Assembly: GCA_030615855.1 (NCBI GenBank)
Contig: JAUWYL010000012.1
Coordinates: forward strand, 1-36,827
Source of the DNA: a bacterium
GTDB taxonomy: Bacteria; UBP18; UBA7526
Length of the DNA: 36,827 nt
Direction: 5' to 3'
The notes under the pieces were generated by a model that ran no database searches, was not told where the DNA came from, and saw nothing but the letters and a program-made list of their open reading frames with translations. Each line of letters starts with the position of its first letter. Position 1 is the stretch's first letter. Below, one piece after another: positions 201-29,916 of this stretch. Made by a program: the position numbers and the translations under genes.

Positions 201-228
201 GGTTACTGTTCGCTGGTTACTGGTTACT
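201..228. repeat. Short GGTTACT heptamer array
   Basis: GGTTACT occurs at 201-207, 215-221 and 222-228, all in the same 7-nt phase with one diverged unit between. It lies in the leader of the S23-like gene. The same word, read as AGTAACC, reappears at the 3' end of the Memo gene (4574-4580), and a close relative forms the array inside purH. Confidence 0.8.
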
Positions 229-246
229 TATTCATTGCTATTTGCT

Positions 247-275
247 ATAATATCACACTATTTCTAACGGGGCAA
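247..275 (-). promoter_or_regulatory. Putative sigma-70 promoter for the S23-like gene
   Basis: On the minus strand TTGCCC (275-270) and TATTAT (252-247) are separated by 17 nt, giving a leader of about 85 nt before the ATG at 156. The -10 overlaps a plus-strand TATAAT-like word. This is motif match only. Confidence 0.45.
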
Positions 276-283
276 GTTTTTTC

Positions 284-312
284 TTGCAAAAATTTTAGAG
301 AGGAGATATAAT
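284..312 (+). promoter_or_regulatory. Putative sigma-70 promoter of the PPIase gene
   Basis: TTGCAA (284-289) and TATAAT (307-312) are separated by exactly 17 nt. Transcription would start near 319, exactly where the heptamer array begins, so the whole roughly 140-nt leader is repeat sequence. Confidence 0.7.
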
Positions 313-318
313 ATTACT

Positions 319-440
319 GTGAACGGTGAACAGTGAACAGCGATCGGTGATCAGTAGACAGAAGTTAACAAGGATACAAGTTAACAAGAAAATACGAGAA
401 TAAGAGAATACGAAAATACGTATCAACTTATTAACTATCC
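319..440. repeat. Phased heptamer array followed by octamer-like array in the PPIase leader
   Basis: Consecutive 7-nt units from 319: GTGAACG, GTGAACA, GTGAACA, GCGATCG, GTGATCA, GTAGACA, GAAGTTA. The phase holds for seven units while bases 2-6 drift. It then passes into 8-nt units such as GAGAATAA, GAGAATAC and GAAAATAC (about 388-418). No ORF or RNA gene is apparent here; this accounts for most of the 157-462 gap. Confidence 0.8.
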
Positions 441-462
441 GAATGGAGTGGGGAGGCAAGTT

Positions 463-1860
463 ATGGTAATGCTCAAGATCATGCGCAGAAGGGCAAGAAG
501 GATTCTTTGGATTACCATCATTTTAATTATACCGGCCTTTATCTGGTGGGGCACAGGGGGATTGCGCGAAAGGGAGATAGGCCTGGTCGCTTCGGTAAAC
601 GGGAAGGGGATCACAAGAGAGGTTTATTACAAGGAAGTTGAGAGACTCTACCGGGGGATGCGAGAGAGGATGGGGGATGCATTCGATGAGAGAATGGCGA
701 AGATTCTGAACCTGGAGGAAGCGGCGGTAAACGACTTGGTTAAAAGAGAGCTCCTTCTTCAGGAAGCGAAAAGGGAAAAGATAAGAGTAAGCGATGAAGA
801 ATTACGAGAAAAGTTAAAAAGCTTCCCTGCCTTCCAAAGGGAAGGTAGATTTGACAAAGAGGTTTACTTTAATGTCCTAGAATATCTCAGGATTACTCCC
901 AAAGAATTGGAGGAAGGGATAAGAGAGGATCTCGCAATGGTAAAACTTGAAAATCGGATTCTAGCAGGAGTGAAGGTGAGTGAAGAGGAGATAAGGAATG
1001 AGTATCTGAAGGAAAATGAAGAGATAGAGATTGAATATCTTCTTATAAAACCCGAGAAAGATATAAGGCCTGAGGAAGAAGAGATAGAAGAATACTACCA
1101 GAAGCAGAAAGAGGATTACCGGATACCAGAGAAGATAAGGGTAAGACACATCTTGATTAAGGGAAAAGAGGCCCGCGAAAGAATAAAGGAAGTAAGCAAG
1201 AGATTAAAGAGGGGGGAAGGTTTCGAGAAGCTGGCTAAAGAACTCTCCCAGTGTCCCAGCAAAGAGAAGGGGGGAGATCTGGGCTTCTTTAAGAGGGGGG
1301 ATATGGTAGAAGAGTTTGAGAGAGTGGCTTTTGGATTAAAAGAAGATCAGATATCCCGCCCGGTAAGAAGTAGGTTTGGCTACCACATCATTAAGTTAGA
1401 AGAGAAAAGAGAATCTCATATCCCACCGTTAGAAGAAGTAAGAGAGAGAATAAAAAGAACTTTAAAAGAAGAAAAGAGATGGGAGACGGCCAGAGAAAAT
1501 GCTCAAGAAATAGCCAAGGGAATAGAAAGAGAAGATTTAGAGGTCTTGGCCAAAAGGTCCTCCTTGGAGGTTAGGGGGACTGGTCTTTTCAAGCGTGGGG
1601 GGAGCAATCTGCCCCGGGAGATTGAAGAAGAAGCCTTTGGCCGCAAAGTGGGTGAAGTGAAGGGTCCTCTAAGGGGAAGGGATGGCTATTACATCGTTAA
1701 ACTGGTTAAACGAAAAGAAATAGACGAAGAAAGATTCGGTCAAGAAAAAGAGGCCTTTAGCAGAGACTTCATTCAAAAGAAAAGAGCAATGGTCTATAAT
1801 CAGTGGTATCAGGATCTATATCAAAAAGCCAAAATTAAAATTTATCCTGCAGAAAGGTAA
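463..1860 (+). CDS. SurA/PpiD-like membrane-anchored peptidyl-prolyl cis-trans isomerase
   Basis: A 465-residue periplasmic folding factor. The start chosen is ATG 463, with GGGAGG at 451-456 and 6-nt spacing; an in-frame GTG at 448 lacks a comparable site. After a short basic stretch comes one hydrophobic segment (about residues 11-30), a signal anchor of the PpiD type. A SurA_N-like helical region spans about 35-185. A parvulin domain (about 215-315) carries the RVRHILIK, GGDLGFFKRGDM and FGYHIIKLEEK motifs. A second, degenerate parvulin-like segment near the C-terminus keeps GLFKRGG and GYYIVKLVKR. In SurA and PpiD such proteins chaperone outer-membrane proteins, which fits the barrel proteins elsewhere in the window. 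It is the only plus-strand gene and converges with apbE, with 4 nt between the stops. Confidence 0.9.
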   Translation: MVMLKIMRRRARRILWITIILIIPAFIWWGTGGLREREIGLVASVNGKGITREVYYKEVERLYRGMRERMGDAFDERMAKILNLEEAAVNDLVKRELLLQEAKREKIRVSDEELREKLKSFPAFQREGRFDKEVYFNVLEYLRITPKELEEGIREDLAMVKLENRILAGVKVSEEEIRNEYLKENEEIEIEYLLIKPEKDIRPEEEEIEEYYQKQKEDYRIPEKIRVRHILIKGKEARERIKEVSKRLKRGEGFEKLAKELSQCPSKEKGGDLGFFKRGDMVEEFERVAFGLKEDQISRPVRSRFGYHIIKLEEKRESHIPPLEEVRERIKRTLKEEKRWETARENAQEIAKGIEREDLEVLAKRSSLEVRGTGLFKRGGSNLPREIEEEAFGRKVGEVKGPLRGRDGYYIVKLVKRKEIDEERFGQEKEAFSRDFIQKKRAMVYNQWYQDLYQKAKIKIYPAER

Positions 1861-1864
1861 GGGG

Positions 1865-2842: not shown

Positions 2843-3375
2843 TGTCTAATCTTCTTCTCACATTCTGGACAGAACCAGGAGTCCTTTACATCTGTATCAA
2901 TTAAGGAGTTGGAGAAGTGCATGACGCATTTTGGATTGGAACAATGTTCCAGGCCAAAGGTATGGCCCAGTTCATGAACCGCCTCCTTTAAGGTTCTTTC
3001 TCTAAGTAGTCTCTCGTTTGGCCTTCTTCTCCAGAACTCTTCTCTCAATCGGACCAGAGAGATCAGGGCAGTCCTTCCTCCCATCTGGGCCTGACCGAAA
3101 ATAAAGTTGAGATTGGGAACATAGAGGTCTAATTCTGTCACCCCCAATACCCAATAGGCCCGCCTTCGCTCTTCGAGCTTCGGTGGGCGGGAAAGATTAT
3201 CTAAAATGGGTGAGGAATGGTACTGTCTCCGCCTTCGATTATAAGCATAATCTGGTTTAGGAAGTGACTCTCCAATCACGACCTCTAAATGGAACTTTTC
3301 TTTTAGGGAAGATTTCAATTCCTCCAATATCTTCCCATCCACTTCTCCAATGGGGATGAGATAGATCTTCTCCAT
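2839..3375 (-). CDS. Archaemetzincin-type zinc metalloprotease
   Basis: About 178 residues. The zinc-protease signature HELGHTFGLEHC, with three His ligands and catalytic Glu, is followed by the C-x4-C-x-M-x-FSNS and C-x2-C cluster that defines archaemetzincins; the Cys set binds a second, structural zinc. Family members start MxIxLIPIG, so ATG 3375 (MEKIYLIPIG) is preferred over in-frame ATG 3390 and TTG 3393, although no start has a strong Shine-Dalgarno. The physiological substrates of bacterial archaemetzincins are unknown. It overlaps apbE by 4 nt (ATGA) and follows the AmrS gene. A GC-rich palindrome at 3158-3191 lies inside the reading frame and encodes a basic loop (PPKLEERRR) just before the conserved VLGVTELDLY segment, probably an in-frame insertion. 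Confidence 0.9.
   Translation of the reverse strand: MEKIYLIPIGEVDGKILEELKSSLKEKFHLEVVIGESLPKPDYAYNRRRRQYHSSPILDNLSRPPKLEERRRAYWVLGVTELDLYVPNLNFIFGQAQMGGRTALISLVRLREEFWRRRPNERLLRERTLKEAVHELGHTFGLEHCSNPKCVMHFSNSLIDTDVKDSWFCPECEKKIRQ
3158..3191. repeat. REP-like palindrome inside the archaemetzincin gene
   Basis: CCCGCC (3159-3164) pairs with GGCGGG (3186-3191) around an inner CTTCGCT...AGCTTCG core. The same core words occur in the 25482-25507 palindrome. It is in frame and adds no stop. Confidence 0.6.
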
Positions 3376-4481: not shown

Positions 4482-4556
4482 GTTAACAGTTTACCCGCTC
4501 CCCCGATTCATCGGGGTCGCTGTTTACCGTTAGCCGTTAACCGTAAACCGTAAACC
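4482..4556. repeat. Heptamer array interrupted by a 26-nt hairpin segment
   Basis: Heptamers GTTAACA (4482-4488) and GTTTACC (4489-4495) are followed by 26 nt holding the palindrome CCCCGATTCATCGGGG (4501-4516). The array then resumes in unit phase with GTTTACC (4522-4528), GTTAGCC, GTTAACC, GTAAACC and GTAAACC to 4556. It fills the gap between the Memo and AmrS genes. Confidence 0.85.
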
Positions 4557-6082: not shown

Positions 6083-6111
6083 GGAAATACCTCCCCATGT
6101 TTTAAGTGGTC

Positions 6112-6153
6112 GTTTACCGTTAACCGTACACCGTAAACCGTCAACCGTTAACC
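6112..6153. repeat. Six perfectly phased heptamers overlapping the rnfB 3' end
   Basis: Units from 6112 are GTTTACC, GTTAACC, GTACACC, GTAAACC, GTCAACC and GTTAACC. The first two bases and the final CC are fixed while the middle varies. The rnfB stop (6143-6141) and its last residues, VNG, are encoded by the final two units. Confidence 0.9.
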
Positions 6154-6947
6154 ATTTCAATGGCGTGAGTGGGGCATTTCTCGACACAGGCCCCACACTC
6201 TGTGCACTTCCCGTAATCGATATGGGCTAAGTTGTCCTTTAGGGTTATCGCTTTCTCTGGACAAACCTTGACACATATTCCACATCCTATACAGCCTTCC
6301 TTGCATATCTTCCTTACTATGGCTCCCTTATCCTTAGAGTTACAGAGAACGTGGACCCCCTTCTCTTCAGGAACTAAGGCAATCACTCCTTTAGGGCAGA
6401 TGGAGACGCACTTGCCACATCCAGTGCATCTCTCTTCGTTTATTTCAATTTTCCCTTTAATTAGAGTGATGGCCCCGAAGGGGCAGGCAAGAATACAGTC
6501 TCCCAATCCCAGACAGCTATAGAGACAGGCCTTATTCCCACCAAACAAGAGAGCCGCTGCCCGACAGCTTTCCAAGCCCCGATAGTCAAACTGAGTCTGG
6601 GAAGCTCCTCTATGATAACAAAGAATCTTGGCGATTCTCTTCTCTCTGACCTCTACCTCTACTCCCAGGATAGAAGCAACTTGATTGGCTACCCCTTCCC
6701 CACCAGGGATGCAGCCATTGGCCTGGGCCCTTTCCTCAATGAGTGCCTTGGCAAAGCCGCTACACCCCGCAAAACCACAGGCTCCGCAGTTTGCTCCAGG
6801 TAGAATCTCCAGTATGGCCTCTACCTTGGGATCTATCTTTGAGACAAGTTTCTTGGAGGCATAGGCCAGTCCACTCCCGGCTAATAGGCCCAAGCCACCC
6901 AACACAATTATAGAAAGAGTTATAGGATTAAGCACCAAATACTCCAT
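6141..6947 (-). CDS. rnfB: Rnf complex ferredoxin-type subunit RnfB
   Basis: RnfB is the iron-sulfur subunit that takes electrons from ferredoxin into the membrane Rnf pump. The 268-residue protein has an N-terminal membrane helix (about 10-32) and the RnfB cluster motif C-G-A-C-G-F-A-G-C followed by a fourth Cys. Ferredoxin-like repeats then follow, with Cys sets at CLGLGDCILAC, CTGCGKCVSIC, CIGCGICVKVC and CTECGACVEKC. That is more cluster sites than the 192-residue E. coli protein has, and like the long clostridial forms. No strong ribosome-binding site precedes ATG 6947; the upstream gap is a repeat. The C-terminus is set by a repeat-borne stop. Confidence 0.96.
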   Translation of the reverse strand: MEYLVLNPITLSIIVLGGLGLLAGSGLAYASKKLVSKIDPKVEAILEILPGANCGACGFAGCSGFAKALIEERAQANGCIPGGEGVANQVASILGVEVEVREKRIAKILCYHRGASQTQFDYRGLESCRAAALLFGGNKACLYSCLGLGDCILACPFGAITLIKGKIEINEERCTGCGKCVSICPKGVIALVPEEKGVHVLCNSKDKGAIVRKICKEGCIGCGICVKVCPEKAITLKDNLAHIDYGKCTECGACVEKCPTHAIEMVNG

Positions 6948-6956: not shown

Positions 6957-7055
6957 GGTTAATATCGGTTAAAAACTGTTAATAATGGTTAAAATCGGTT
7001 ACATTAAAAAGCAACTGATATTAACCGCTATTAACTACTGTTAACTGTTATTAAC
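6957..7055. repeat. GGTTAA-type array with 10-bp inverted ends between rnfA and rnfB
   Basis: Loose 9-11 nt units of GGTTAAnATC type (6957-7003) are followed by the reverse form (ATTAACC, TTAACT words, 7017-7055). GGTTAATATC at 6957-6966 is exactly inverted by GATATTAACC at 7017-7026, so the transcript could fold into a long hairpin within the operon. Confidence 0.75.
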
Positions 7056-7063
7056 TAATCTGT

Positions 7064-7645
7064 TTAAAGTTTTACTAAACCACTGAAGCCCATGAAGGCT
7101 AAGGAGAGAAGTCCAGCCGTGATAAGGGTGATGGCTGCTCCCTGTAGGGCTACTGGGACATCAGCTAATTCCAGCCTTTCTCTTATCCCAGCCATGATGA
7201 GGAGAGCTAGGGCAAAGCCAATCCCCGCTCCCAGGCCAAAGAAAATGGCCTGAATGGCATTATGTCCTTTGATGACATTCAATAGAGCGAGACCTAAGAT
7301 GGCACAATTGGTAGTAATCAACGGGAGGTAGATTCCTAAAGCGCGATATAGGGCAGGGCTAATCTTTTCTAAGACAATCTCGACCAGCTGGACCAAGGAG
7401 GCGATGACCAGAATGAAGGTGATGATATGTAAGAATAAGAGGTTCAAGGGAACTAAAACAAGATTATATATGAGGTTGGTCACTAAAGAAGCTAAGGTCA
7501 TGACGAAGATCACCGCCATGCCCATCCCCAGTGCGGTCTCTACCCTTCTGGAAACGCCTAAAAAAGGACAGATGCCCAAGAATCTTGTTAAGACAAAGTT
7601 ATTTACTAAGATGGCACTTAAGAAGATTACGAATAAATGAAGCAT
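7064..7645 (-). CDS. rnfA: Rnf complex membrane subunit RnfA
   Basis: A 193-residue integral membrane protein with about six predicted helices. Recognisable RnfA motifs are [20 protein letters not shown] near the N-terminus, [10 protein letters not shown] in the middle and IREKLE-like [12 protein letters not shown] near the C-terminus. The two half-motifs containing membrane Cys (GICPF and TNCAI) are the pair that coordinates an intramembrane iron-sulfur cluster with RnfE in characterised Rnf/Nqr structures. Its ATG 7645 shares one base with the rnfE stop (TAATG), so the two related subunits are translationally coupled. Confidence 0.96.
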
Positions 7646-8232
7646 TACACTCTCCGTAGTCTATTCATTAGTCCCAATAGAAGGCCTAAAACGATGAATG
7701 CTCCCGGAGGAAGGAGCATAACTATAAAGAGAGGATAGCCTTCTCCTAAGAGAGCAAATCCAAAGACGGTTCCACTTCCCAGTATTTCCCTTATACTACC
7801 CAGAACGATTAAAGAGATGGTGAAGCCCAGCCCCATTCCCAAACCATCAATGAGAGAACGAAGGAGGGGATTCTTTGAGGCGTAAGCCTCTGCCCTTCCC
7901 AAGATGATGCAGTTAACAACAATGAGCGGTATGAAGAGGCCGAGCACCTTATGCAGTTCGTAGAAGAAGCCGGCCATGAGCATATCGATGATGGTAACGA
8001 AGGAGGCAATGATGACGATGAAGGCCGGAATCCTCACCCGAGGAGGAATGAATCTCCGTAACAAAGAAATAGTACAATTTGAGCCAACTAAGACTACGGT
8101 AGTGGCCAGCCCCATAGCCACCCCATTTATAGCAGCAGTAGTCACAGCTAAGGTGGGACACATTCCGAGAAGTAGTCTGAATATTGGATTCTCGGTAACG
8201 AATCCCTTGGTAAACTCTTTCCTCAAACCCAC
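7645..8232 (-). CDS. rnfE: Rnf complex membrane subunit RnfE
   Basis: A 195-residue, multi-helix membrane subunit paralogous to RnfA. Motifs are [23 protein letters not shown] (membrane Cys), [22 protein letters not shown] and [13 protein letters not shown]. With RnfA it forms the symmetric membrane core of the pump. The start is GTG 8232, supported by GGAG about 8 nt upstream. Order rnfG-rnfE-rnfA-rnfB is the classic arrangement. The upstream gap to rnfG is repeat-filled. Confidence 0.95.
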
Positions 8233-8307
8233 TCTAATTCTCCATAAAGGTTACATCTGACGGTTACGGCAACGAGGCCCGTATCGGTAACATTGCAGGG
8301 TTACGTT

Positions 8308-8430
8308 GAAAAAATCAAATGTTAAAAATTAAATATTAAAATCACAGATTAAAATCCAAAATTTTACATTTTATATTGTCATTTTGATTTTTGCATTTTG
8401 ATTTTTGATATTGCGCTATATCATTTGATA
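8308..8430. repeat. A/T-rich short-word repeat with inverted halves between rnfG and rnfE
   Basis: Words such as AAAATCA, TTAAAAAT and AAATCCAAAATTTT on the left mirror CATTTTGATTTTTG words on the right (ATTTTGATTTTTGCATTTTGA around 8381-8405). It is low complexity with no coding signal and lies inside the rnf operon. I see nothing else in 8233-8474. Confidence 0.6.
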
Positions 8431-8474
8431 TGGGCATCATAATCCTAACCGAACGACGATAAACCAACTTTTGT

Positions 8475-9053
8475 TTACTGTCCAATCAGAATCTGTTCTT
8501 TGTATTTCAGGAAAACTTTTAGTCCCTTATCCACCGCCTCTACTATTCCCCGGGAAGAGATGGTGGCACCAGTCAAAGCATCGATGTCCCCCTTATCCTT
8601 CTTGACCGCTAATCTTCCATCAACCAATTTAGAATTGGCTAAGGACTTTTCTTTGAACTGGTTCTTAAATTCCTCCTTCTCAATATTTGCTCCCAGGCCG
8701 GGGGTTTCCATATGCTCCAAAATCTCTATGCCAGTAATAGAATCATCTTCTGGGTTCACTCCCATCATAATGGTGATGAAGCCACTATATCCTTCCCCTT
8801 TTGAGGAGAAGGCAACTCCAGTAATTTCTCCCTCCTTTTTCCCTAAATAAAAGGTTATTCCTTCAATCTCCTTTTTATCCTTTAAGGGATCGTTATCGAA
8901 GGGAGGGAGGACAGATTTGATGGCCTTCAAATGGGCTAATCTCTTCTGCTCTAAGCGAGGCTCCTTTGTGAGTCTATCCACTCCTGCCAGGGCCAAAGCA
9001 GCAATGAGGCAGACCAGAGTTAAAACAATAACCAACCTCAGTGACTCTCTCAT
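8475..9053 (-). CDS. rnfG: Rnf complex flavoprotein subunit RnfG
   Basis: About 192 residues. One N-terminal membrane helix is followed by an extracytoplasmic FMN-binding domain. The covalent flavinylation motif is DALTGATISS, with acceptor Thr at about residue 164 (T in GAT); ApbE links FMN there by a phosphoester bond. GGTGGGYSG-like GEGYSGFITIMMGV and EHMETPGLGANI, typical of RnfG/NqrC, are also present. Start ATG 9053 is preferred because GAGGT precedes it by 9 nt; an in-frame ATG at 9068 overlaps that site. The matching apbE gene closes the same gene run. Confidence 0.94.
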   Translation of the reverse strand: MRESLRLVIVLTLVCLIAALALAGVDRLTKEPRLEQKRLAHLKAIKSVLPPFDNDPLKDKKEIEGITFYLGKKEGEITGVAFSSKGEGYSGFITIMMGVNPEDDSITGIEILEHMETPGLGANIEKEEFKNQFKEKSLANSKLVDGRLAVKKDKGDIDALTGATISSRGIVEAVDKGLKVFLKYKEQILIGQ

Positions 9054-9115
9054 TCTTGTATACCTCATTCAGAAAAATAATCGCATAAGATACAATAACT
9101 AAACAACATACTTAA

Positions 9116-9290
9116 AATCCGAAATCCGAAACCAGAAATCCGAATAAATGTCCAAATGCCTCAATGATTAAATTTGACATTTGGAAATTTGAGCATTGAT
9201 TCGTCATTCGGGTTTCGTCATTCTAATTTGATTATTAGTGATTAGTTATTGTTTGATGTTTGTATCTTGTATCTTGGGTATTAAAGTGGC
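9116..9290. repeat. ATCCGAAA-type repeats with inverted words between rnfD and rnfG
   Basis: ATCCGAA words (9117-9144) are answered by TTCGTCATTCGGGTTTCGTCATTC on the other side, and TCCAAATG and CTCAATGA (9149-9168) by CATTTGGA and GAGCATTGA (9176-9199). Then come TGATTA and TTGTATCTTGTATCTTG direct repeats (about 9230-9276). No gene is visible in the gap. Confidence 0.6.
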
Positions 9291-9292
9291 AG

Positions 9293-10234
9293 TTATTTTA
9301 CCTTTGACTTGCGTGGTCTGATGAAGCGATCAATTAAGGGGGCGAAGGCATTCATCAGAAGAATAGAGAAGGAGACTCCTTCTGGTGGGCCTCCCTTTAA
9401 TCTAATTAAAGCAGTAATAGCACCACAGCCTATTCCAAATATCATCCTCCCTGAGCGAGAAGTAGGAGAAGTAACGGGATCAGTGGCCATAAATAAAGCG
9501 CCCAATAAGAGACCACCGGCTAAGATGTGGAAGAGCATTGGGCCTTTGAATAGCTCTTCTCCACCAAATAACCAACAAAGGATTCCAGTAGTAGCAATAA
9601 AGGTAAATGGTATGTGCCAGGTGATGTGTTTTCTAAGAAGAAGATAGAGCGCCCCAATAATTAGAGCCAAAGCAGAAGTCTCACCAATACAGCCTCCCAC
9701 ATTGCCTAAGAATAAGTCTTTCAAAGGGGTTAATACACTATTCTCTTTCAAAGCGGTTAAGGGCGTGGCATAGGTCAAGGCATCGAAGGAAATAAATCTT
9801 GGGAGAGACCAGGTAGTCATGACCACAGGAAAGGAGATTAATAAGATGGTTCTGGCGACGAGGGCAGGATTGAAGATATTATGTCCCAGTCCACCAAAGG
9901 CCTGCTTTCCAATGGAGATGGCGATGGCTCCTCCTGCCCCGGCCATCCATAATGGAATGCCAGGAGGGAGGTTGAAGGCCAAGAGGATTCCCGTGACTAC
10001 TGCACTTCCATCGAAGATAGTAACTGGTTTCTTGCAGGCTTTCTGAATGAGGGCCTCAGTAATTAATGCTGAGAACGTGGTTACCAGGATGATATAGATT
10101 GCCTTAGAGCCGAAGAAGTAGATGCTGGCAATGGTGGCGGGAATTAAGGCTATGATGACGTCCCACATCATTCTGGGAATATTCCCTCTTATCCTAATAT
10201 GAGGAGAGACAGAAACGACTAACTTCTGAGGCAT
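9293..10234 (-). CDS. rnfD: Rnf complex flavoprotein subunit RnfD
   Basis: A 313-residue membrane subunit with many hydrophobic helices and landmarks SPHIR, MWDVIIALIPA, LLAFNLPPGIPLWMA, KQAFGGLGHNIFNPALVAR and FMATDPVTSPTS-like LFMATDPVTSPTSR. The covalent FMN site is DALTYATPL with acceptor Thr157. The position before the Ala is Tyr rather than the usual Gly or Ser, but the Thr-Pro-Leu core is intact. Start ATG 10234 has AGAGGA 5-6 nt upstream. Expected to be flavinylated by the co-located ApbE. Confidence 0.95.
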   Translation of the reverse strand: MPQKLVVSVSPHIRIRGNIPRMMWDVIIALIPATIASIYFFGSKAIYIILVTTFSALITEALIQKACKKPVTIFDGSAVVTGILLAFNLPPGIPLWMAGAGGAIAISIGKQAFGGLGHNIFNPALVARTILLISFPVVMTTWSLPRFISFDALTYATPLTALKENSVLTPLKDLFLGNVGGCIGETSALALIIGALYLLLRKHITWHIPFTFIATTGILCWLFGGEELFKGPMLFHILAGGLLLGALFMATDPVTSPTSRSGRMIFGIGCGAITALIRLKGGPPEGVSFSILLMNAFAPLIDRFIRPRKSKVK

Positions 10235-10257
10235 AAAGTCCTCTCTTTGTTATTTCA

Positions 10258-10395
10258 ATGCAAAATGAAAAATTAGCAATGAACAATGCAAAATTATTTA
10301 TTCTCTTTTACAGTAACAAAACATAAAGGTCCTTGTTTTCCTTAATAATTAGTTCAGTTATAAATTGTTAATTTTGCACTGCTAATTTTGCACTT
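10258..10395. repeat. GCAAAATTA-type repeat with inverted copy between rnfC and rnfD
   Basis: Words GCAAAATGAAAAATTAGCAATG and TGCAAAATTA (10260-10296) are mirrored by TAATTTTGCAC, twice (10367-10393). The repeat begins directly after the rnfC stop. Confidence 0.6.
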
Positions 10396-11709
10396 TTAAC
10401 TGATTTTTGTAGGAAGTTGGGCTTTGGCATACTTTATGAGTTGGACTAATGGTATCTTTGCCGGGCAAACATAGGCACAGATCCCACACTCCATGCAGTC
10501 CAGCGCCCCATACTCTCTGGCCCAATCAAACCTATCCTTGCTGGCGTACTTTGCAATCAGGTTAGGTGAGATGTCCACGGGGCAGACATCGACGCATCTT
10601 GAACATCTGATGCAGGATTTCTCCCTTATCTCTTCCGTCTCCTCTTCAGGTAGAACGAGAATCCCAGTGGTTCCTTTAATTACTGGAATCGAAGTAGTAT
10701 ACTGGGCGAAGCCCATTAATGGTCCGCCCATGATCATCTTGCCCGGTCTCCCCCTGAATCCTCCACAATAGTCAATCACATCCTGGAAAAGGGTACCAAT
10801 TCTTACTCTTAAGTTGGCTGGATTCTTAATCCCTTTTCCCGTGACAGTGACCACCCTCTCGATTAAGGGGCTTCCCTTCTTCACTGCCTCACTTATTGCC
10901 AAAGCGGTCCCTACATTCTGGACTACTACCCCAACATCCAGGGGCAGTCCTCCAGAAGGAACCTCCCTATTCAAAATGGCCTTTATTAATTGTTTCTCTG
11001 AACCCTGGGGATACTTCGTTTTGAGGGCAACGACCTCCATATTCGCTTCATTGCGAATCTCTTCCCTCATTGCTCTTATAGCATCCCTCTTATTCCTCTC
11101 AATTCCGATATAGCAGGAGGTGACCTCCAGGGTCTTGGCGATGATCTTTAACCCCTGAATGATCTCGTATGTCTTTTCAATCATTAACCTGTGATCGCAG
11201 GTGAGGTAGGGTTCGCACTCACAGCCATTCAGGATAACGGTATCTATCCACTTATCCTCTGGAGGAGAAAGCTTGACATGAGTGGGAAAGGCCGCTCCAC
11301 CCAGACCAACGATGCCCGCCTCTCTAACGATCTCCCTTATCTCATTGGGATGGAGTCTGAAGTAGTCATTATTATGCTTGATGCTCGGGTGATGTTCATC
11401 CCTTCCATCAGATTCAATGGTAATTGCCAGACTGGGAGGACCTAAGGGGTGGGGATGATCTGAGATATCTACGACTTTTCCTGAGATAGAGGCGTGGATG
11501 TTAGAGGAGATGGGGCCTTGGGCCTCACCAATCTTCTGTCCCGTCTTTACCCTATCTCCTACCTTGACCGCTGGTTCGGCAGGAGCACCAGTATGCTGGG
11601 ATAGGGGAATGACCACCTTTTTGAGAAGGGGTAATTCTTGGATGGGTTTTTGGGAAGTGATCTTTTCTTCAGGAGGATGGACTCCCCCCCGAAAACTCCT
11701 TATTTTCAT
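10396..11709 (-). CDS. rnfC: Rnf complex NADH-binding peripheral subunit RnfC
   Basis: RnfC oxidises or reduces NAD on the cytoplasmic side of the pump. The product is 437 residues from ATG 11709 (MKIRSFRGGVHPPEEK, the normal RnfC start), with AAGGA about 9 nt upstream. Motifs include GLGGAAFPTHVKL (nucleotide/FMN region, like NuoF), NGCECEPYLTCDHRLM, PSGGLPLDVGVVVQNVGTA and GGPLMG. Two 4Fe-4S motifs follow, CIRCSRCVDVCP and CMECGICAYVCP. It is the first rnf gene in the order C-D-G-E-A-B. The gap upstream of it contains a composite repeat and no obvious promoter, so it may be read from the promoter at 13863-13891. Confidence 0.96.
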   Translation of the reverse strand: MKIRSFRGGVHPPEEKITSQKPIQELPLLKKVVIPLSQHTGAPAEPAVKVGDRVKTGQKIGEAQGPISSNIHASISGKVVDISDHPHPLGPPSLAITIESDGRDEHHPSIKHNNDYFRLHPNEIREIVREAGIVGLGGAAFPTHVKLSPPEDKWIDTVILNGCECEPYLTCDHRLMIEKTYEIIQGLKIIAKTLEVTSCYIGIERNKRDAIRAMREEIRNEANMEVVALKTKYPQGSEKQLIKAILNREVPSGGLPLDVGVVVQNVGTALAISEAVKKGSPLIERVVTVTGKGIKNPANLRVRIGTLFQDVIDYCGGFRGRPGKMIMGGPLMGFAQYTTSIPVIKGTTGILVLPEEETEEIREKSCIRCSRCVDVCPVDISPNLIAKYASKDRFDWAREYGALDCMECGICAYVCPAKIPLVQLIKYAKAQLPTKIS

Positions 11710-11758
11710 TGATCCGATTTCCTTTAATCCTTTCGACCCTTCACAAGACAAGATAGGT

Positions 11759-12491: not shown

Positions 12492-12552
12492 ACAGGAAAT
12501 CAGGTGATCAGGAACTTCCTGATCGCCTGATGACCCGATAACCCGATCACCC
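12492..12552. repeat. Octamer array with inverted halves
   Basis: 8-nt units CAGGAAAT, CAGGTGAT and CAGGAACT run left to right, then CTGATCGC, CTGATGAC, CCGATAAC and CCGATCAC in the inverse sense. It occupies the gap between the phosphatase gene and rpiB. Confidence 0.75.
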
Positions 12553-13668: not shown

Positions 13669-13862
13669 TTCTTCTCCTGCCCAACCAAGATAACCCCTTC
13701 GGGGTTACTTCCATAGGGGCTTTGCCCCTCTGGCGGTCGGCAAAGGCATGCTTTGCCTCCCTGTCACCCCCTGGGGGCAAGCAGATTCTTTCCCCCCAGA
13801 CCCCCTAATCATCGGTATCGGAATTTATTGAAATTCCGATACCTCAAATCCATCTCACAACG
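13669..13862 (-). other. tsaC leader rich in small palindromes
   Basis: This non-coding part of the 426-nt gap holds several mini-hairpins: AACCCCTTCGGGGTT, GGGGCTTTGCCCC, GGCAAAG-GCATG-CTTTGCC and CCCCCTGGGGG (about 13692-13780), plus the 13-bp-stem hairpin at 13814-13843. No ORF with coding character is seen. It would be transcribed as the tsaC 5' leader. Confidence 0.6.
13814..13843. repeat. Perfect 13-bp-stem hairpin
   Basis: GGTATCGGAATTT pairs exactly with AAATTCCGATACC around a 4-nt loop. The word TTGAAATTCCGATAC recurs in degraded form at 14018-14037 and about 11866-11880. It has no T tract, so it does not look like a classical terminator. Confidence 0.8.
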
Positions 13863-18284: not shown

Positions 18285-19868
18285 TTAGTGTCTGAAGTGT
18301 CTTATTCCAGTAAAGGCCATGGCTATATTATGCTCGTCACAGGCTTTAATTATTTCTTTATCTCTTATTGAACCCCCTGGTTGGATAATAGCAGAAACCC
18401 TTGCTTTCGCTGCCTCATCGATGGAATCCCTAAAAGGGAAGAAGCCATCAGAAGCCATCACTAAGGGGATGTGGGATGTGGGATGTGGGATGTGGGATTG
18501 CATTTTTGAAATGGCGATTTTGACTGCGTCAATACGAGAGGTCTGGCCAGCACCGATGCCCAAAGCCTCGGTCTTGTTGCCTATGACGATAGCATTGGAC
18601 TTAATATATCTTACCACTTTCCAATTGAAAAGTAAAGCCTTTATTTCTTCTTGAGTGGGCGATCTTCTGGTCATCACTTTCAGCTCTTTAATTTCGATAT
18701 CTTCAGTATCTCTATCCTGAACCAATAATCCCCAGTCTACTGTCCGCATATCTTTTTGGTGATCGGTGATCCGACCCGGCTTTGCCGGGTGCCCGCGGTG
18801 ATCGGTGATTTTTATTACTCGTAGATTCTTCTTCCTCTTCAAAACTCTCAAAGCCTGAGGAGTGAATTCAGGGGCGATCACTGCCTCAATGAAGGTGGAG
18901 GTTAGCTCTCCAGCTGTAGGAGTATCGACCTTTCTATTCAGGCCGACCACTCCTCCAAAGGCAGAAAGGGGATCGCAGGCTCTCGCCTTTCGATAGGCGC
19001 TAACTAAATTTCTATCTCTCGCTACTCCGCAGGGGTTGGTATGCTTAATAATAACCGCAGTCGGCTCCTTAAACTCTTTGACTATAGTTAAAGCAACATC
19101 CAGATCCAGAATGTTATTAAAGGATAACTTCTTCCCCCATAGTTGCTTCCAATTTTGCATTTTGCATTTTACATTTTGCATTTGATACAGGGCTGCCCTC
19201 TGATGGGGATTCTCCCCATACCTCAAATTCTGTACCTTCTCATATTCTAGGTATAATTCTCTCGGTAACTGGTAACTGGTAACTGGTAACTGGTAACTCT
19301 TTAAGTATCCATATACCATTCTATCATATTTCAGGAGATATCTAAGGGCTTTTTTTGCTAAATTCTCTTTAGTCTTTTGTGATAGATTGCCCTTTCTTTT
19401 CCTTAATTCATCTAGGGTTCTTTTATAATCTTCAGGATTGATGATTACTCCCACATTCTGGTAGTTTTTGATCGCTGCTCTAATCAGAGCTGCTCCTCCA
19501 ATATCCATACCCTCTAAATTTTTCCTGGGGGGGTAGAGGTTAACGGCGACAAGATTGATGGGTTTTATATCTTCTCTGGCCAGCTCTTTCAAATGCTTTC
19601 TGTTACGTAAGGCTAATATGCCCCCAAAAATCGCAGGATGCAGGGTCTTTACTCTCCCTCCTAAAATTTCCTTAAAGTCTGTAATCTCTGAGACGGTTTT
19701 GACTGGGATATCCTTCTTTTTAAGTGTTCTCGCTGTGCCCTTAGTAGCGATGATTTCAAAGCCCAATCTCACTAATCCCTTAGCAAAAGGAACAAGACCT
19801 TCTTTATCGGCAACACTAATTAAAGCTCTCTTTATTTTCTTTCCCGTCGAAAATTTTTCATTTTTCAT
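18285..19868 (-). CDS. purH: Bifunctional AICAR transformylase/IMP cyclohydrolase carrying four repeat insertions
   Basis: PurH catalyses the last two steps to IMP. IMP cyclohydrolase motifs are RALISVADKEGL, GGRVKTLHPAIFGG, NLYPP and DIGGAALIRAA. Transformylase motifs are LRYGENPHQRA, KHTNPCGVA, DPLSAFGGVVGLNR, GQTSRIDAV and MASDGFFPF. The 527-residue length is normal because loops are replaced by repeat-coded peptide: about residues 191-202 (SYQLPVT repeated), 230-240 (QMQNVKCKMQN), 354-371 (ITDH...ITDH) and 456-468 (HIPHPTSHIP). None breaks the frame. The ATG 19868 lies in an AAAATG-type repeat and overlaps the previous stop as ATGA; no Shine-Dalgarno is visible. Catalytic regions look intact, so it should be functional. 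Confidence 0.95.
   Translation of the reverse strand: MKNEKFSTGKKIKRALISVADKEGLVPFAKGLVRLGFEIIATKGTARTLKKKDIPVKTVSEITDFKEILGGRVKTLHPAIFGGILALRNRKHLKELAREDIKPINLVAVNLYPPRKNLEGMDIGGAALIRAAIKNYQNVGVIINPEDYKRTLDELRKRKGNLSQKTKENLAKKALRYLLKYDRMVYGYLKSYQLPVTSYQLPRELYLEYEKVQNLRYGENPHQRAALYQMQNVKCKMQNWKQLWGKKLSFNNILDLDVALTIVKEFKEPTAVIIKHTNPCGVARDRNLVSAYRKARACDPLSAFGGVVGLNRKVDTPTAGELTSTFIEAVIAPEFTPQALRVLKRKKNLRVIKITDHRGHPAKPGRITDHQKDMRTVDWGLLVQDRDTEDIEIKELKVMTRRSPTQEEIKALLFNWKVVRYIKSNAIVIGNKTEALGIGAGQTSRIDAVKIAISKMQSHIPHPTSHIPLVMASDGFFPFRDSIDEAAKARVSAIIQPGGSIRDKEIIKACDEHNIAMAFTGIRHFRH
18466..18493. repeat. (GGGATGT)x4 heptamer array inside purH
   Basis: Four exact 7-nt units occupy 18466-18493 and a partial GGGATT follows. 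It encodes the HIPHPTSHIP stretch on the minus strand. Confidence 0.95.
18758..18810. repeat. GGTGATC heptamers flanking a 25-nt hairpin inside purH
   Basis: Two GGTGATC units (18758-18771) are followed by a 25-nt segment with the stem CCCGGC-TTT-GCCGGG, then GGTGATC and GGTGATT (18797-18810). It has the same architecture as 4482-4556, but here within a coding region. Confidence 0.95.
19152..19179. repeat. ATTTTGC heptamer array inside purH
   Basis: Units are ATTTTGC, ATTTTGC, ATTTTAC and ATTTTGC, in exact 7-nt phase. It encodes the QMQNVKCKMQN stretch. Confidence 0.95.
19264..19298. repeat. (GGTAACT)x5 heptamer array inside purH
   Basis: Five exact units. Because 3 x 7 = 21, the encoded peptide repeats every seven residues (SYQLPVT). 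It lies between the cyclohydrolase and transformylase domains. Confidence 0.97.
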
Positions 19869-20530
19869 TTTACATTTTTACTTGATAATTGTCTGGTGAC
19901 TTCATCTGTTTTTAATACCAATCCGATATTCTCCTTAAAATATTTTAGGGCGGCCCTGTGTAGGTCTCTATGAGTAGCACTTACTACGTCAGAGACTACT
20001 ATTACCTCATAATCCCGGAAGTAGGCATCCCTTACCGTAGAAGAGACGCAGCAGCTGGTGGTCACCCCGCAGACGATGAGCCTTTTAACTTTTAATCTCT
20101 TCAAAAGCCTATCCAGGCCTGTCTTATAGAAAGCACTATACCTTCTCTTCCTAACAATATATTCTTTCTTTTGAGGATTAATCTCAGGAATGAGCCTTGC
20201 TCCAGGAGTATTCTCTATACAATAGGCACGGTTATACTTTTTATCCAGCAGAGCCCAGTCGCTTCTATCCTTTTTGTGAGAAGTAACAGCATAAACGATG
20301 GGAATTTTTTTCTTGCGGCAGGCAGTTAAGAGTTTAACTATCTTAGGAATAATCTTCTTGACAGGCGGAACGTAGACCGGTGAGTTCTTAAAATAGATGA
20401 AGTCGTTCTGCATATCAACGACTAAGAGCACGGTCCTCACCCCGCACCTTTTTATATTCCTCTTTTTCCGTGTTCCTGTCAAAGGTGTGGGGTTCAATTC
20501 CTTCTTCTTGCTTAAAGGTGCGGGGCTCAT
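19865..20530 (-). CDS. Isochorismatase-fold cysteine hydrolase
   Basis: The core (about residues 33-215 of 221) has the catalytic triad of the family: Asp in LLVVDMQNDF, Lys in YIVRKRRYSAF and Cys in GVTTSCCVSSTVRDAY. Nicotinamidase-like amide hydrolysis is possible, but the metal-binding pattern of true nicotinamidases is not evident. ATG 20530 overlaps the purB stop as ATGA, but the first 30 residues are encoded by the 20440-20525 repeat. An in-frame GTG at 20440 preceded by AAGGTG is an attractive alternative start that would remove them. The C-terminus (...SSKNVK) and the stop lie in the repeat at the purH start. Confidence 0.85.
   Translation of the reverse strand: MSPAPLSKKKELNPTPLTGTRKKRNIKRCGVRTVLLVVDMQNDFIYFKNSPVYVPPVKKIIPKIVKLLTACRKKKIPIVYAVTSHKKDRSDWALLDKKYNRAYCIENTPGARLIPEINPQKKEYIVRKRRYSAFYKTGLDRLLKRLKVKRLIVCGVTTSCCVSSTVRDAYFRDYEVIVVSDVVSATHRDLHRAALKYFKENIGLVLKTDEVTRQLSSKNVK
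20440..20525. repeat. Element with 12-bp terminal inverted repeats, copy A
   Basis: CCCCGCACCTTT (20440-20451) is exactly inverted by AAAGGTGCGGGG (20514-20525), and an internal AAAGGTGTGGGGTTC half-copy lies at about 20481-20495. Copy B is at 29916-30018. It overlaps the 5' part of the hydrolase gene. Confidence 0.85.
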
Positions 20531-26776: not shown

Positions 26777-26785
26777 TTTTAGCTC

Positions 26786-26864
26786 TGGCGGGGGCGAAGG
26801 GATTTGAACCCTCGCTCTTGGCCTTGACAGGGCCACGTGTTAAACCAGGCTACACCACGCCCCC
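26786..26864 (-). tRNA. tRNA-Asp (GUC)
   Basis: 79 nt including CCA. Acceptor GGGGGCG/CGCCCCC, anticodon stem TGGCC/GGCCA with loop CTGTCAA (anticodon GUC), T-arm GAGGG-TTCAAAT-CCCTT and discriminator G. Confidence 0.95.
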
Positions 26865-26876
26865 TTATAAATATTA

Positions 26877-26905
26877 ATTATAACAGAAAAAGTCTCTTTT
26901 GTCAA
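26877..26905 (-). promoter_or_regulatory. Consensus sigma-70 promoter of tRNA-Asp
   Basis: On the minus strand TTGACA (26905-26900) and TATAAT (26882-26877) are separated by exactly 17 nt, and the start would lie about 6 nt before the tRNA. It is the best promoter match in the window and shows that the organism uses ordinary sigma-70 boxes. Confidence 0.92.
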
Positions 26906-26930
26906 AGTTTTAGAAGAAGCCTCTAAAAAA

Positions 26931-27001
26931 ATCGCAGATTCAGACAGATAAATTATCAAAAAAGACTTCCGTCTGCATCCGTGATAATTTGTTTGCATCC
27001 G
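26931..27001. repeat. GCAGATT/CATCCG short-word inverted repeat
   Basis: AAATTATC (26950-26957) is inverted by GATAATTT (26983-26990). The words CAGATTCAGACAGAT and GTCTGCATCCG...TTGCATCCG are related to the array at 33188-33360. It lies between the fusion-protein gene and tRNA-Asp. Confidence 0.6.
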
Positions 27002-27015
27002 TTTTTCAATGTTCT

Positions 27016-29916
27016 CTAAAAAACTACCGCCATTCCCAGCCAGGGCCGAACATCCTCGTAGTCATCGAAGCCATGGGCTAAGGCAAGTTCCAGGTTCAGA
27101 GGAATATGATAGAAGATGAAGGATTTCAGGCGAATCCCAGCTCCGGCATCAGTATCGAAGTCACCGATGGATAGTTTCCCTTGGAACCAGGCAGTACCAC
27201 TATCCACAAAGAGCATGCCATATAGCCTGTCAAGATAGAAGAAGGAGAGCTTCTTTCCCATATCCTGTAGGATGGGAAAGCGATACTCTGCGCTCCAGAA
27301 GCCCATCTTATCTCCGCGAAAAGAGTTATATTCATAGCCTCTCAGGTTCTCCATCCCTCCTAAGAGGAAGGCGCCCTGGCTCAGGTTATGTCCCTTACAG
27401 AAGCCCCCCATGGCTCTCAGGGCCAGGGTATGACGCTTATAGAGGGGAATATATTCTCGCCAATCCAGGGTATATTCGTTGAAGTTGAAATCGCTCCCAT
27501 AGGATTCATCTGCTAAAGCATAAGAAAGGATGACCCGTCTCCCTTGCGGGTTGATATCCATGTCCAGAGTAGGTTTTATCCGATAATGCATGAGGCTCGC
27601 TCCCCAGGTAGCGATATGGCCATCATCTGGAAGATTGGGAGGATTAATGTCCCTGTCGGTATCTATGTCATCAACGAAGTAAGCCTCATAATCTAATAAT
27701 AGATACCCTATCGGTACCAAGGGAAAGCCAGCACCTACTATTCCTCCCCGCCTCCTCTCCCAGTAATCATCGGTCAGATTATCCTGATTGGGACCCTCAA
27801 TATAGTTGGTGTAACCAAGAGAGTAATCATAAGCACCAACTAGGATATTGGGAAAGAACTGACGATTGAGATAGTAGGCATAGCCCGATACCCCCCCATA
27901 CCCCCCATAGCCAATAGCGCTTTGGAAGATATGTTTCCCCATGACATCTTGGGCGTAGCCCATGACGCTCAAGCCCAGGGGCATCCATAGAATGGGCCTT
28001 ATTCTCGGTCGATACTTTCTTACCGGGTATTCCTCCCTCTCCTCTGCTTCAGGATTATTACTTGAAAATGAATCGGGGAATCGGTGTATTTCTGTATCGG
28101 TGTAACGGCGCGTCGGTGTATCGGTGTAATTCTCTTCTACTCCCTTACTCCGATACTCCGTTACTCCCTTACTTCCTTCTTCCTTCTCTAAGACCTTAAT
28201 GTCATAGCCATCTGCGCTATAAGCGGAGAAGACGACCCCCTCTCTCCCAGAAGAGTAGGAAGGCTCAAAGGCTCCCCCAATGACATTGGTCAGTTGTTTT
28301 ACCCTCTTTGTTTCTAAATCGAGTTCATAGATGTTGAAGATTCCCGTCCTATCTGAGGAGAAGATGATTCTCTTGCCATCCTTTGACCAGGAGGGATCCC
28401 GATCATCCGCTTTATCATTGGTAAGGGAGACTATTTCTGATCCATCGACATTCATTAGATATAGATCCCTCTGGCCGTCCTTGAATCTGGAGAAGACGAT
28501 CTTCTTTCCCTCTGGTGAGAACTTGGGAGTGAAGTACTGAGTGTAGTCCTCGGTCTTTGTAAGATAGATAACCTCTTCTGTTTCCAAACTAAAGAGGCAA
28601 ATATTCGTCTTCCCTCCTTCATTCTTGATAAAGACAATAGTTTTTCCATCTGGTGAGAGATGGGGCTCCTTGGCCCTCATCCCCCGGGTGAGGCGCCTCT
28701 TCTTATTTACCTGCGTCCAGTCAATGAGATAGAGATCACTATAATAGGAACCCCGCCAGTTATACCAATTCTTAGAGTAGACTAACTTCTCTCCATCATA
28801 GGAGAAGGAGGGATCGGGATTGACTTTCCCCGCCAAGCACCTATGTTTCTCACTATCCAGGTCCCAGAGATAGAGCCTTAATCTCTCATAGTCCTGACCC
28901 TTATTGGAGACAAAGGCTATCTCATTTTTAGTTGGCGAGAAGGTAGGATGCCTATCACACCATCCCCGGGAGACCAGGTCCTTGACATTCTCATCAGGGG
29001 TGATATGCTTAGTCTCTTCCCTATACTTCTTCTCCAGATCCTCCTTCCACTCCTTATAGAGCCACCTGGGAGTATCCTTCACTCGGTAATACATATTTCT
29101 CTTTAGGGACAGATAATTATGGCCTTTTCCCTCTAAGATGGAGGCGATACCTTCTTCCCCGTGCTTCTTCTTCATATATTTGGTGAGAGAATAGCCCTGA
29201 TTGTAGACCATCTCATTCCCTAAGCCGTTCTTCCCATAGACCCCCATCCGATTATAGGTGAGTAGCTTATCCTCTAATGTTGCACTCCTTAGGATCATAT
29301 CTCGATGGCTATCCCAGAATTCCCCTCCGCCTTCTTCGCTGGTATCCTGGGCCAATCCCTCAATGAACCAAGAGGGGACGAATTCACTGGGCCCGGGGAA
29401 TCCCGGACCGAATACCTTAACCAGCCTTCTGGGAAGACCGCTCATGATATCTAGATGGACGATGTGAGTAAACTCGTGAGGGATGACCGTCTCCAGCCAC
29501 TTATGGGTTCCCCTCAAGGAAATATCCATATGGGTGAGCCAGATGACAATCCTCTGATTTGCGGAATCGGCAAATCCATTGGCATAATCATCAGTATCTA
29601 AGATAATGATGTGGGTCTTGGCCTCTGGCTCATGGCCCAGTCTCTTGGTAATCGGTCCATAGCATCTCTCCGCAATCTGGGCTACATCCTTAGCAACGTC
29701 TGTATGTTTTCTCTTATCAAAGTAGACCAGAAAATGAGGGGTCTCCATGACATACCACTTTATCTCTGGATGGTTGAAGGGAGACCAGGGAACCTGCCCC
29801 AGGATAATTTCCTCTGGGGTCTTAGGAATTAAATTAGGGGATAGAAGATTCTGAGCAAGTATATTCTGGGAAAAGAAGAGGACTATTAAGACTAAAGTAA
29901 AAAATATTTTTTTCAT
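27016..29916 (-). CDS. Secreted fusion: peptidase-MA-like domain, TolB-type propeller and BamA-type barrel
   Basis: 966 residues from ATG 29916 (MKKIFFTLVLIVLFFSQNILAQ, signal peptide; AAGGTG upstream is supplied by a repeat). Domain 1 (about 50-290) has a gluzincin zinc site, HEFTH at 147-151 with Glu in WFIEGLAQ, as in peptidase MA. Domain 2 (about 315-590) has PD40/TolB propeller repeats (SPDGKTIVFIKNE, SPEGKKIVFSRFKDGQRDLYLMNVDG, SKDGKRIIFSSDRTG). Domain 3 (about 660-966) is an Omp85-like barrel with LLGGMENLRGYEYNSFRGDK, the RGY region of BamA/TpsB proteins, and a terminal Phe. It lacks visible POTRA domains. A repeat-coded linker (28073-28176) joins propeller and barrel. Likely in the outer membrane with protease and propeller in the periplasm. 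Confidence 0.85.
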   Translation of the reverse strand: MKKIFFTLVLIVLFFSQNILAQNLLSPNLIPKTPEEIILGQVPWSPFNHPEIKWYVMETPHFLVYFDKRKHTDVAKDVAQIAERCYGPITKRLGHEPEAKTHIIILDTDDYANGFADSANQRIVIWLTHMDISLRGTHKWLETVIPHEFTHIVHLDIMSGLPRRLVKVFGPGFPGPSEFVPSWFIEGLAQDTSEEGGGEFWDSHRDMILRSATLEDKLLTYNRMGVYGKNGLGNEMVYNQGYSLTKYMKKKHGEEGIASILEGKGHNYLSLKRNMYYRVKDTPRWLYKEWKEDLEKKYREETKHITPDENVKDLVSRGWCDRHPTFSPTKNEIAFVSNKGQDYERLRLYLWDLDSEKHRCLAGKVNPDPSFSYDGEKLVYSKNWYNWRGSYYSDLYLIDWTQVNKKRRLTRGMRAKEPHLSPDGKTIVFIKNEGGKTNICLFSLETEEVIYLTKTEDYTQYFTPKFSPEGKKIVFSRFKDGQRDLYLMNVDGSEIVSLTNDKADDRDPSWSKDGKRIIFSSDRTGIFNIYELDLETKRVKQLTNVIGGAFEPSYSSGREGVVFSAYSADGYDIKVLEKEEGSKGVTEYRSKGVEENYTDTPTRRYTDTEIHRFPDSFSSNNPEAEEREEYPVRKYRPRIRPILWMPLGLSVMGYAQDVMGKHIFQSAIGYGGYGGVSGYAYYLNRQFFPNILVGAYDYSLGYTNYIEGPNQDNLTDDYWERRRGGIVGAGFPLVPIGYLLLDYEAYFVDDIDTDRDINPPNLPDDGHIATWGASLMHYRIKPTLDMDINPQGRRVILSYALADESYGSDFNFNEYTLDWREYIPLYKRHTLALRAMGGFCKGHNLSQGAFLLGGMENLRGYEYNSFRGDKMGFWSAEYRFPILQDMGKKLSFFYLDRLYGMLFVDSGTAWFQGKLSIGDFDTDAGAGIRLKSFIFYHIPLNLELALAHGFDDYEDVRPWLGMAVVF
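28073..28176. repeat. Thirteen phased octamers inside the fusion gene
   Basis: 8-nt units run without slippage from 28073: TCGGGGAA, TCGGTGTA, TTTCTGTA, TCGGTGTA, ACGGCGCG, TCGGTGTA, TCGGTGTA, ATTCTCTT, CTACTCCC, TTACTCCG, ATACTCCG, TTACTCCC, TTACTTCC. Two unit families (TCGGTGTA and TTACTCCG) adjoin. It encodes a roughly 35-residue linker with no stop. Confidence 0.95.

What the first reader, a model, noticed from the sequence alone, without database searches (positions are those of the whole stretch)
201..28176. Window-wide short repeat arrays locked in 7-nt or 8-nt phase
Arrays at 201-228, 319-367, 4482-4556, 6112-6153, 18466-18493, 18758-18810, 19152-19179 and 19264-19298 are exact heptamers; 12492-12552 and 28073-28176 are octamers. 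Unit length is strictly kept while unit sequence drifts and differs from array to array (GTTTACC, GGTGATC, GGTAACT, GGGATGT, ATTTTGC). Cyanobacterial STRRs are heptamers too, but are mostly intergenic and use few unit types. The constant length with variable sequence hints at a templating or slippage machinery rather than spread of one sequence.
Basis: partly seen in the sequence, partly recalled or inferred. Interest (0 to 1): 0.75.

Follow-up and report, generated by a model that had tools for sequence, protein, structure and literature searches.

The report
Drifting 7- and 8-base repeat arrays
This little-known bacterial family is peppered with short tandem repeats whose unit is almost always 7 or 8 bases long, even inside core genes, and comparison of relatives shows that the unit's letters change together over time while its length stays fixed.

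Summary
All ten stated arrays have the claimed period as best period, though only two are exact. In 266 kb of the same genome outside the window, 44 segments have period 7 and 33 period 8, against 1, 1 and 4 at 6, 9 and 10; 354 kb from ten unrelated genomes gave 0 and 1. About a third of the heptamer arrays lie inside genes, including purH, lnt, lpxK and kdtA. At ten coding sites, 26 of 30 orthologous intervals in relatives still hold a 7-nt array, and at 10 of 10 sites units differ between genomes. Register is kept and units diverge at roughly the four-fold-site rate, while copies within an array stay alike: concerted evolution of fixed period. No reverse transcriptase or Y1 transposase was found; MutS and MutL domains are missing in all six genomes, but MutS absence does not track repeat density elsewhere. 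Heptamer excess is known from many bacteria; its place inside core genes with unit turnover, and the strong 8-nt class, are new.

The parts
198..228 (.). 7-nt array (CTGGTTA type); copy carried with a paralogous flank in L067 and L069
319..355 (.). 7-nt array (GTGAACA/GTGATCG), 73% complementary to 198-227 as an inverted partner
362..420 (.). 8-nt arrays (AAGTTAAC, AATACGAG); 362-389 has a 28/28 copy at another locus
4482..4556 (.). 7-nt array (GTTAACC/GTAAACC) interrupted by a hairpin at 4497-4520; similar composites at other loci in this genome and relatives
6111..6153. 7-nt array CGTNNAC upstream of or at the start of a flavin-reductase-like gene; called coding but the start codon is uncertain, probably non-coding
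6957..7056 (.). 10-nt repeats (GGTTAATAAC / TATTAACTGT) as inverted arms
8310..8409 (.). 7/13/14-nt A+T-rich arrays as inverted arms; dispersed family
12492..12552 (.). 8-nt array (CCTGATNN / GATAACCC) with inverted arms 12499-12531
18466..18498 (-). 7-nt array GGGATGT x4.7 in frame in purH; GAGATGT in G002, GGGTCAA-like in G003, same length
18758..18810 (-). 7-nt array GGTGATC in purH with hairpin 18772-18796; uninterrupted in G002 and G003; ACATTGG array with another hairpin in G004
19152..19183 (-). 7-nt array ATTTTGC in purH; +63 nt hairpin inside it in G002; GGTAATC array in G004; no array in G003
19264..19298 (-). 7-nt array GGTAACT x5 in purH; other, partly related units at the same place and length in G002, G003, G004
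19853..19879 (-). 7-nt array ATTTTTC at the purH start; other array types there in G003 and G004
28072..28178 (-). 8-nt arrays ATCGGTGT and TACTCCCT in frame in an Omp85/PD40-repeat protein gene; 105-nt copy at 89.5% in an unrelated pseudopilin-like gene
18285..19868 (-). purH (AICAR transformylase / IMP cyclohydrolase) carrying five arrays, four in poorly conserved gap-rich loops and one at the N-terminus

Best explanation
A family-wide population of short tandem arrays, made and maintained by a slippage / short-range template-switch process that steps by 7 or 8 nt, tolerated in intergenic DNA and in weakly constrained protein loops. Once present at a site an array persists: point mutations enter at about the ordinary neutral rate and are spread to the neighbouring copies, so the unit drifts as a block while period and register are inherited. 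In genes only frame-keeping outcomes survive, so the copy-to-copy correction must mostly be length-neutral (a transient misalignment by one unit followed by realignment) or be balanced. On top of this, whole arrays with hairpins inside them are now and then copied to other loci, probably through recombination between similar arrays. The lineage lacks MutS and MutL, which removes one check but does not explain the step size. Shown: period, genome-wide extent, coding location, site persistence, unit change with register kept, unit-step indels in two non-coding arrays, copies of composites, no detected MutS/MutL/RVT/Y1 domains. Inferred: slippage and realignment as the process, recombination as the route of copying, neutrality. 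No host function is proposed.
For: Spectrum. Ten coding sites: 26 of 30 other-genome intervals (one of them a second G002 contig) keep a period-7 array (score >=7; 1.7% of random 40-nt and 3.4% of random 70-nt stretches do), and at 10 of 10 sites two arrays differ by >=2 of 7. Register: over 17 equal-length pairs in-register unit identity 4.82/7 against 1.60/7 in the six other registers; for the 9 pairs under 6/7, 3.22 against 1.78 (permutation 5.5e-5; pairs share arrays, so they are not independent). In-register identity 0.69 lies within the four-fold-site identity of 0.58-0.74 (one value of 0.91 from the mixed G002 lpxK contigs left out). Homogenisation: within-array identity of the genome not used to find the site 0.88, between genomes 0.67, within > between in 11 of 13 pairs. 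Unit-step indels -7 and -8 in non-coding arrays. Octamer site 28072-28187 keeps period 8 with other units in 4 of 4 genomes scored. MutS_V and DNA_mis_repair: 0 of 6 genomes; control 11 of 14. Internal array-coded PurH segments lie where 28 outgroups agree poorly: top-residue frequency 0.17-0.32 against 0.67 elsewhere.
Against: In coding sites length differences are often 0 or multiples of 3 that are not multiples of 21 (+3, +6, -9, -15), so one-unit slippage alone does not account for them. Some unit changes are as large as between unrelated units (lnt site 7944: 3/7 in register, 0.35 identity between G000 and G002, where four-fold sites are 0.69). MutS absence does not predict arrays: MutS-minus genomes have 15 period-7/8 segments in 368 kb, MutS-plus 17 in 717 kb over 20 other genomes; WOR-3 (MutS-plus) is rich, an Actinomycetota and a CG22 bin (MutS-minus) have none. 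Nothing here explains why 6 and 9, which genes would tolerate better, are missing. All family genomes are bins of 53-94% completeness; G002 holds two versions of the lpxK region.
Confidence: 0.6

Rival explanations
1. Spread of mobile elements: the arrays are arms or bodies of non-autonomous palindromic elements (MITE/REP-like), copied to many sites and then decaying; unit length is constant because all descend from a few founders.
For: Dispersed composites: G004 purH site and L113, 68 nt at 98.5%; G002 purH site and G004 L122, 87 nt at 94%; window 28069-28173 and L067, 105 nt at 89.5%; several window arrays have further copies in the own sample; units cluster; 25 of 102 arrays have a complementary partner within 150 nt beyond chance at p<=0.02.
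Against: No Y1 transposase or reverse transcriptase in 6 of 6 genomes; no target duplication or constant boundary was seen; 28 of 38 heptamer units occur once; orthologous sites keep the register but not the unit, which fresh insertion would not give; most arrays have no complementary partner.
Confidence: 0.2
2. A dedicated step-synthesis activity (a polymerase or template-switching enzyme with a 7-8 nt step) writes and rewrites arrays.
For: Sharp 7/8 peak with 6 and 9 almost absent, even in genes; arrays of unrelated unit at the same site and length; the same 7/8 preference in other phyla: 20 and 12 segments against 7 at periods 5, 6, 9 and 10 together in 1.08 Mb of 20 genomes.
Against: No candidate gene; reverse transcriptase absent; gradual in-register drift at about the neutral rate suffices for many sites.
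Confidence: 0.12
3. Selection on function: arrays are binding sites, terminators or useful peptide linkers.
For: Some intergenic arrays form inverted arms; octamers sit in the leader region of pseudopilin-like genes.
Against: Units differ between relatives at every compared coding site; a 7-nt DNA period inside genes cannot arise from selection on the peptide, which reads the unit in three frames; arrays fall in non-conserved loops.
Confidence: 0.05
4. Assembly or binning artefact.
For: The family genomes are draft bins; G002 has two lpxK regions.
Against: Arrays of about 25-60 nt are shorter than usual reads, keep open frames in core genes, and occur at the same sites in several bins.
Confidence: 0.02

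Closest known systems
Long simple sequence repeats with heptanucleotide excess (Mrazek et al. 2007, as described in PMC4679880 section 3 and in PMC4692102 passages; the 2007 paper itself was not seen)
   Same: Seven is the favoured unit length; polymerase slippage over a 7-nt contact was proposed
   Different: Here 8 is nearly as common, periods 6 and 9 are almost absent, about a third of heptamer arrays are in genes including core enzymes, and orthologous arrays show unit turnover in register
TAACTGA repeats of Beggiatoaceae, Cyanobacteria and some Bacteroidetes (PMC4679880)
   Same: Heptamer direct repeats, many sets per genome, a few in ORFs
   Different: There one favoured heptamer with near variants rare and mostly just upstream of start codons; here dozens of units
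Cyanobacterial STRRs (recalled) and GGGAATC / GGGGA(C/T)T repeats of Xanthomonas and Nostoc (PMC4692102, passages)
   Same: Heptamers, also with sequence and length variation at the same intergenic place between relatives
   Different: Few unit types and strong non-coding bias there
Tandem repeats of archaeal Borg elements (PMC9879509, passages)
   Same: Locus-specific units, in genes and between them, evolving fast, lineage-specific
   Different: Borg units in ORFs are all divisible by three and near-perfect; here 7 and 8 and often degenerate
Rickettsia palindromic elements (PMC10969869, passages)
   Same: In-frame insertion of repeat DNA, including palindromes, in unrelated metabolic genes
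   Different: RPEs are ~150-bp families with a conserved peptide; here short arrays of drifting unit with smaller hairpins inside

Membership tests
Heptanucleotide long simple sequence repeats | Genome-wide excess of unit length 7 over neighbouring lengths | tested here: met
   44 at 7 against 1 at 6 and 1 at 9; but 33 at 8
Heptanucleotide long simple sequence repeats | Length change by whole units | tested here: inconclusive
   -7 and -8 in two non-coding arrays; coding arrays mostly 0 or multiples of 3
Cyanobacterial STRR | Few heptamer types, mostly intergenic (definition recalled and from the finding) | tested here: not met
   38 units in 60 arrays; 21 of 60 wholly in genes, 27 intergenic, 12 overlapping gene ends
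TAACTGA repeats | One favoured unit TAACTGA | tested here: not met
   TAACTGA is not among the 38 canonical units; one-base neighbours such as GGTAACT are
Borg-type ORF tandem repeats | Units in ORFs divisible by three | tested here: not met
REP/RAYT or other Y1-mobilised palindromes | Y1 transposase in the genome | tested here: not met
   0 of 6 genomes, control 5 of 14
Diversity-generating retroelement or retron-like templating | Reverse transcriptase | tested here: not met
   0 of 6 genomes, control 3 of 14
Rickettsia palindromic elements | In-frame insertion into unrelated genes | tested here: met
   arrays and hairpins in frame in purH, lnt, lpxK, kdtA
Rickettsia palindromic elements | Conserved ~100-150 bp element with conserved peptide | tested here: inconclusive
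   shorter hairpins and composites recur; no conserved peptide was looked for
Phase-variable contingency loci | Repeat number switches a gene on or off in a population | not testable with these tools
   no reads or strain series on hand

The most novel reading that the evidence does not exclude
A replication or repair activity of this family, and of some other candidate phyla, works in a 7-8 nt step and keeps rewriting tandem arrays in place, also inside essential genes and without changing their length, so that each array is a running record of length-neutral, unit-by-unit template switching in cells without MutS/MutL repair.
Probability: 0.2. Interest if true: 0.85.

Novelty: new variant of a known kind. 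Interest (0 to 1): 0.6.

Why it matters
Why bacterial tandem repeats favour seven bases has been an open remark since 2007. Here the signal is very clean (7 and 8, not 6 or 9), it recurs in several candidate phyla, and it enters core genes, where a 7-nt unit cannot be a product of selection on protein. Orthologous sites with different units in one register give a natural record from which the step size, direction and rate of the underlying copying error could be read. It also shows how core enzymes such as PurH, LpxK, KdtA and Lnt can carry loops made of repeat DNA.

Tried and rejected
MutS loss as the cause: MutS_V was sought in 23 genomes and the spectrum taken in 20 of the 22 non-own ones (Bacillus L008 and Clostridia L015 not sampled). 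MutS-minus genomes had 15 period-7/8 segments in 368 kb, MutS-plus 17 in 717 kb; not a clean link, so kept only as a possible contributing factor.

Reverse transcriptase and Y1 transposase: none. Inverted-partner arrays as the rule: only 25 of 102 arrays beyond chance, so the hairpin-element reading is partial. Arrays as regulators: no support.

Gene calls are my own simple ORF scoring; the array at 6111-6153 counted there as coding is probably upstream of the true start. The interval lengths are extrapolated from BLAST ends and can be off by a few bases (for example -5 at lpxK in G001). My note says hairpins at 6 sites; the list there and one search give 5 of 10. The kdtA pair of length 67 contains hairpins and is poorly aligned; it was kept in the count. 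G003 at kdtA (masked bases) was left out. The sites come only from the regions I compared (the window and parts of L067, L072 and L074 with their orthologues), not from the whole genomes.
Full report
What was checked. The window has 9 period-7 segments against 0.15 expected from shuffles, and lesser peaks at 8 and 10. So a 7/8 peak is a property of the genome.

Where they are. With simple gene calls (coding 87%), 21 of 60 heptamer arrays lie wholly inside a gene, 27 are intergenic and 12 overlap a gene end; for octamers 8, 24 and 10 of 42. Genes have fewer than their share but are far from free of them. The hosts include PurH, apolipoprotein N-acyltransferase, LpxK, KDO transferase, an amidohydrolase (HutI-like) and pseudopilin-like proteins. 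Unit lengths of 6 or 9, which would be harmless in genes, are nearly absent, so the length is set by the mutational process or by descent and not by selection for frame. In PurH the four internal arrays fall in segments where 28 outgroup sequences agree poorly (top residue 0.17-0.32 against 0.67 elsewhere; gap fraction 0.20-0.55 against 0.01).

How they evolve. The family has five more genomes on hand. I located orthologues by DNA and fetched them. At ten coding sites the array stays in place in 26 of 30 other-genome intervals, and at each of the ten sites at least two arrays have clearly different units. The lpxK site is the clearest: AATTGGG in G000 and one G002 contig, TTAACCC in the other G002 contig, AATTTTG in G004, ACTTTGG in G001, GACCTGC in G003 and G005. 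At purH 18466 all copies changed together, GGGATGT to GAGATGT, with no change in length. In G003 at purH 18758 the two middle copies share a base that the outer ones lack, which looks like a change caught while spreading.

Drift or replacement. If arrays were replaced by unrelated arrays, register would be random. In 17 equal-length pairs the in-register unit identity is 4.82 of 7 against 1.60 in other registers, and for the 9 pairs below 6 of 7 it is 3.22 against 1.78. The mean in-register identity, 0.69, is within the range of four-fold degenerate sites in the same genes, 0.58-0.74, leaving out the G002 lpxK value of 0.91, which mixes two contigs. Copies within an array are more alike (0.88) than orthologous arrays are (0.67), in 11 of 13 pairs, measured in the genome that was not used to find the site. 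This is concerted evolution at about the neutral rate. A few sites (lnt 7944, lnt 8046) look too different for that alone.

Spread. Composites of array, hairpin and array also travel. The G004 purH composite recurs at 98.5% over 68 nt at an unrelated place in the same genome, where it continues another heptamer array; the ATTTTGC-hairpin composite of G002 purH recurs at 94% over 87 nt at another locus of G004. In the own genome the octamer composite of the Omp85/PD40 gene recurs at 89.5% over 105 nt in a pseudopilin-like gene. Hairpins sit inside the array in at least one genome at 5 of 10 coding sites.

Machinery. Reverse transcriptase and Y1 transposase domains are absent in 6 of 6 family genomes. 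MutS_V and the MutL domain are also absent in 6 of 6, with controls positive in 11 of 14; bins are 53-94% complete, but the joint absence makes lineage loss likely. Across 20 other genomes periods 7 and 8 together give 32 segments against 7 for 5, 6, 9 and 10 together, but density does not follow MutS. An Aerophobetes bin has seven octamer segments and no heptamer; a WOR-3 bin has both.

Known work. The excess of heptamers in bacterial long simple repeats and the idea that 7 nt reflects the polymerase contact are described in PMC4679880 (abstract and sections 3, 8 and 15 read) and PMC4692102 (passages) as findings of Mrazek et al. 2007, which I did not see. PMC9879509 (passages) and PMC10969869 (passages) give the Borg and Rickettsia comparators. 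PMC4060949 was searched for heptamer terms and gave none. I ran eight literature searches; none listed a paper on period-7/8 arrays with unit turnover inside core genes, but the library holds only open-licence papers.

Verdict. Real, genome-wide and family-wide; best read as slippage-type concerted evolution of fixed period plus copying of composites; the step size of 7-8 nt remains unexplained.

Noticed in passing
G000-G005 (whole genomes): MutS_V (PF00488) and DNA_mis_repair/MutL (PF01119) domains are absent in 6 of 6 genomes of this family; six Omnitrophota bins, one Aerophobetes and one Actinomycetota bin also lack MutS_V.
   Followed up: partly
window 13686-13848; 33269-33359; about 34258-34349: Other dispersed repeats of about 165, 90 and 90 nt with many copies in family genomes, not seen as 7/8-nt arrays.
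   Followed up: no
L067:5346-9224: A run of genes, two of them with a prepilin methylation motif in Pfam, whose leader region is made of octamer arrays.
   Followed up: partly
G002 contigs C80 and C49 (L119, L120): Two versions of the lpxK region in one bin, one 99% and one 87% identical to G000 at the flanks: strain mixture or contamination.
   Followed up: no
G054 (L148, L168, L188, L036): An Aerophobetes bin with seven octamer segments and no heptamer one in 57 kb: octamers alone.
   Followed up: no
window 1-229: A 229-nt stretch including the first array has paralogous copies at about 90% elsewhere in the own sample (array copies in L067 and L069), so this array seems to have been duplicated together with its flank.
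   Followed up: no
window 7064-11751: Gene order resembles an rnf operon; recalled from the sequence, only the neighbouring ferredoxin-type gene 6141-6947 was scanned.
   Followed up: no
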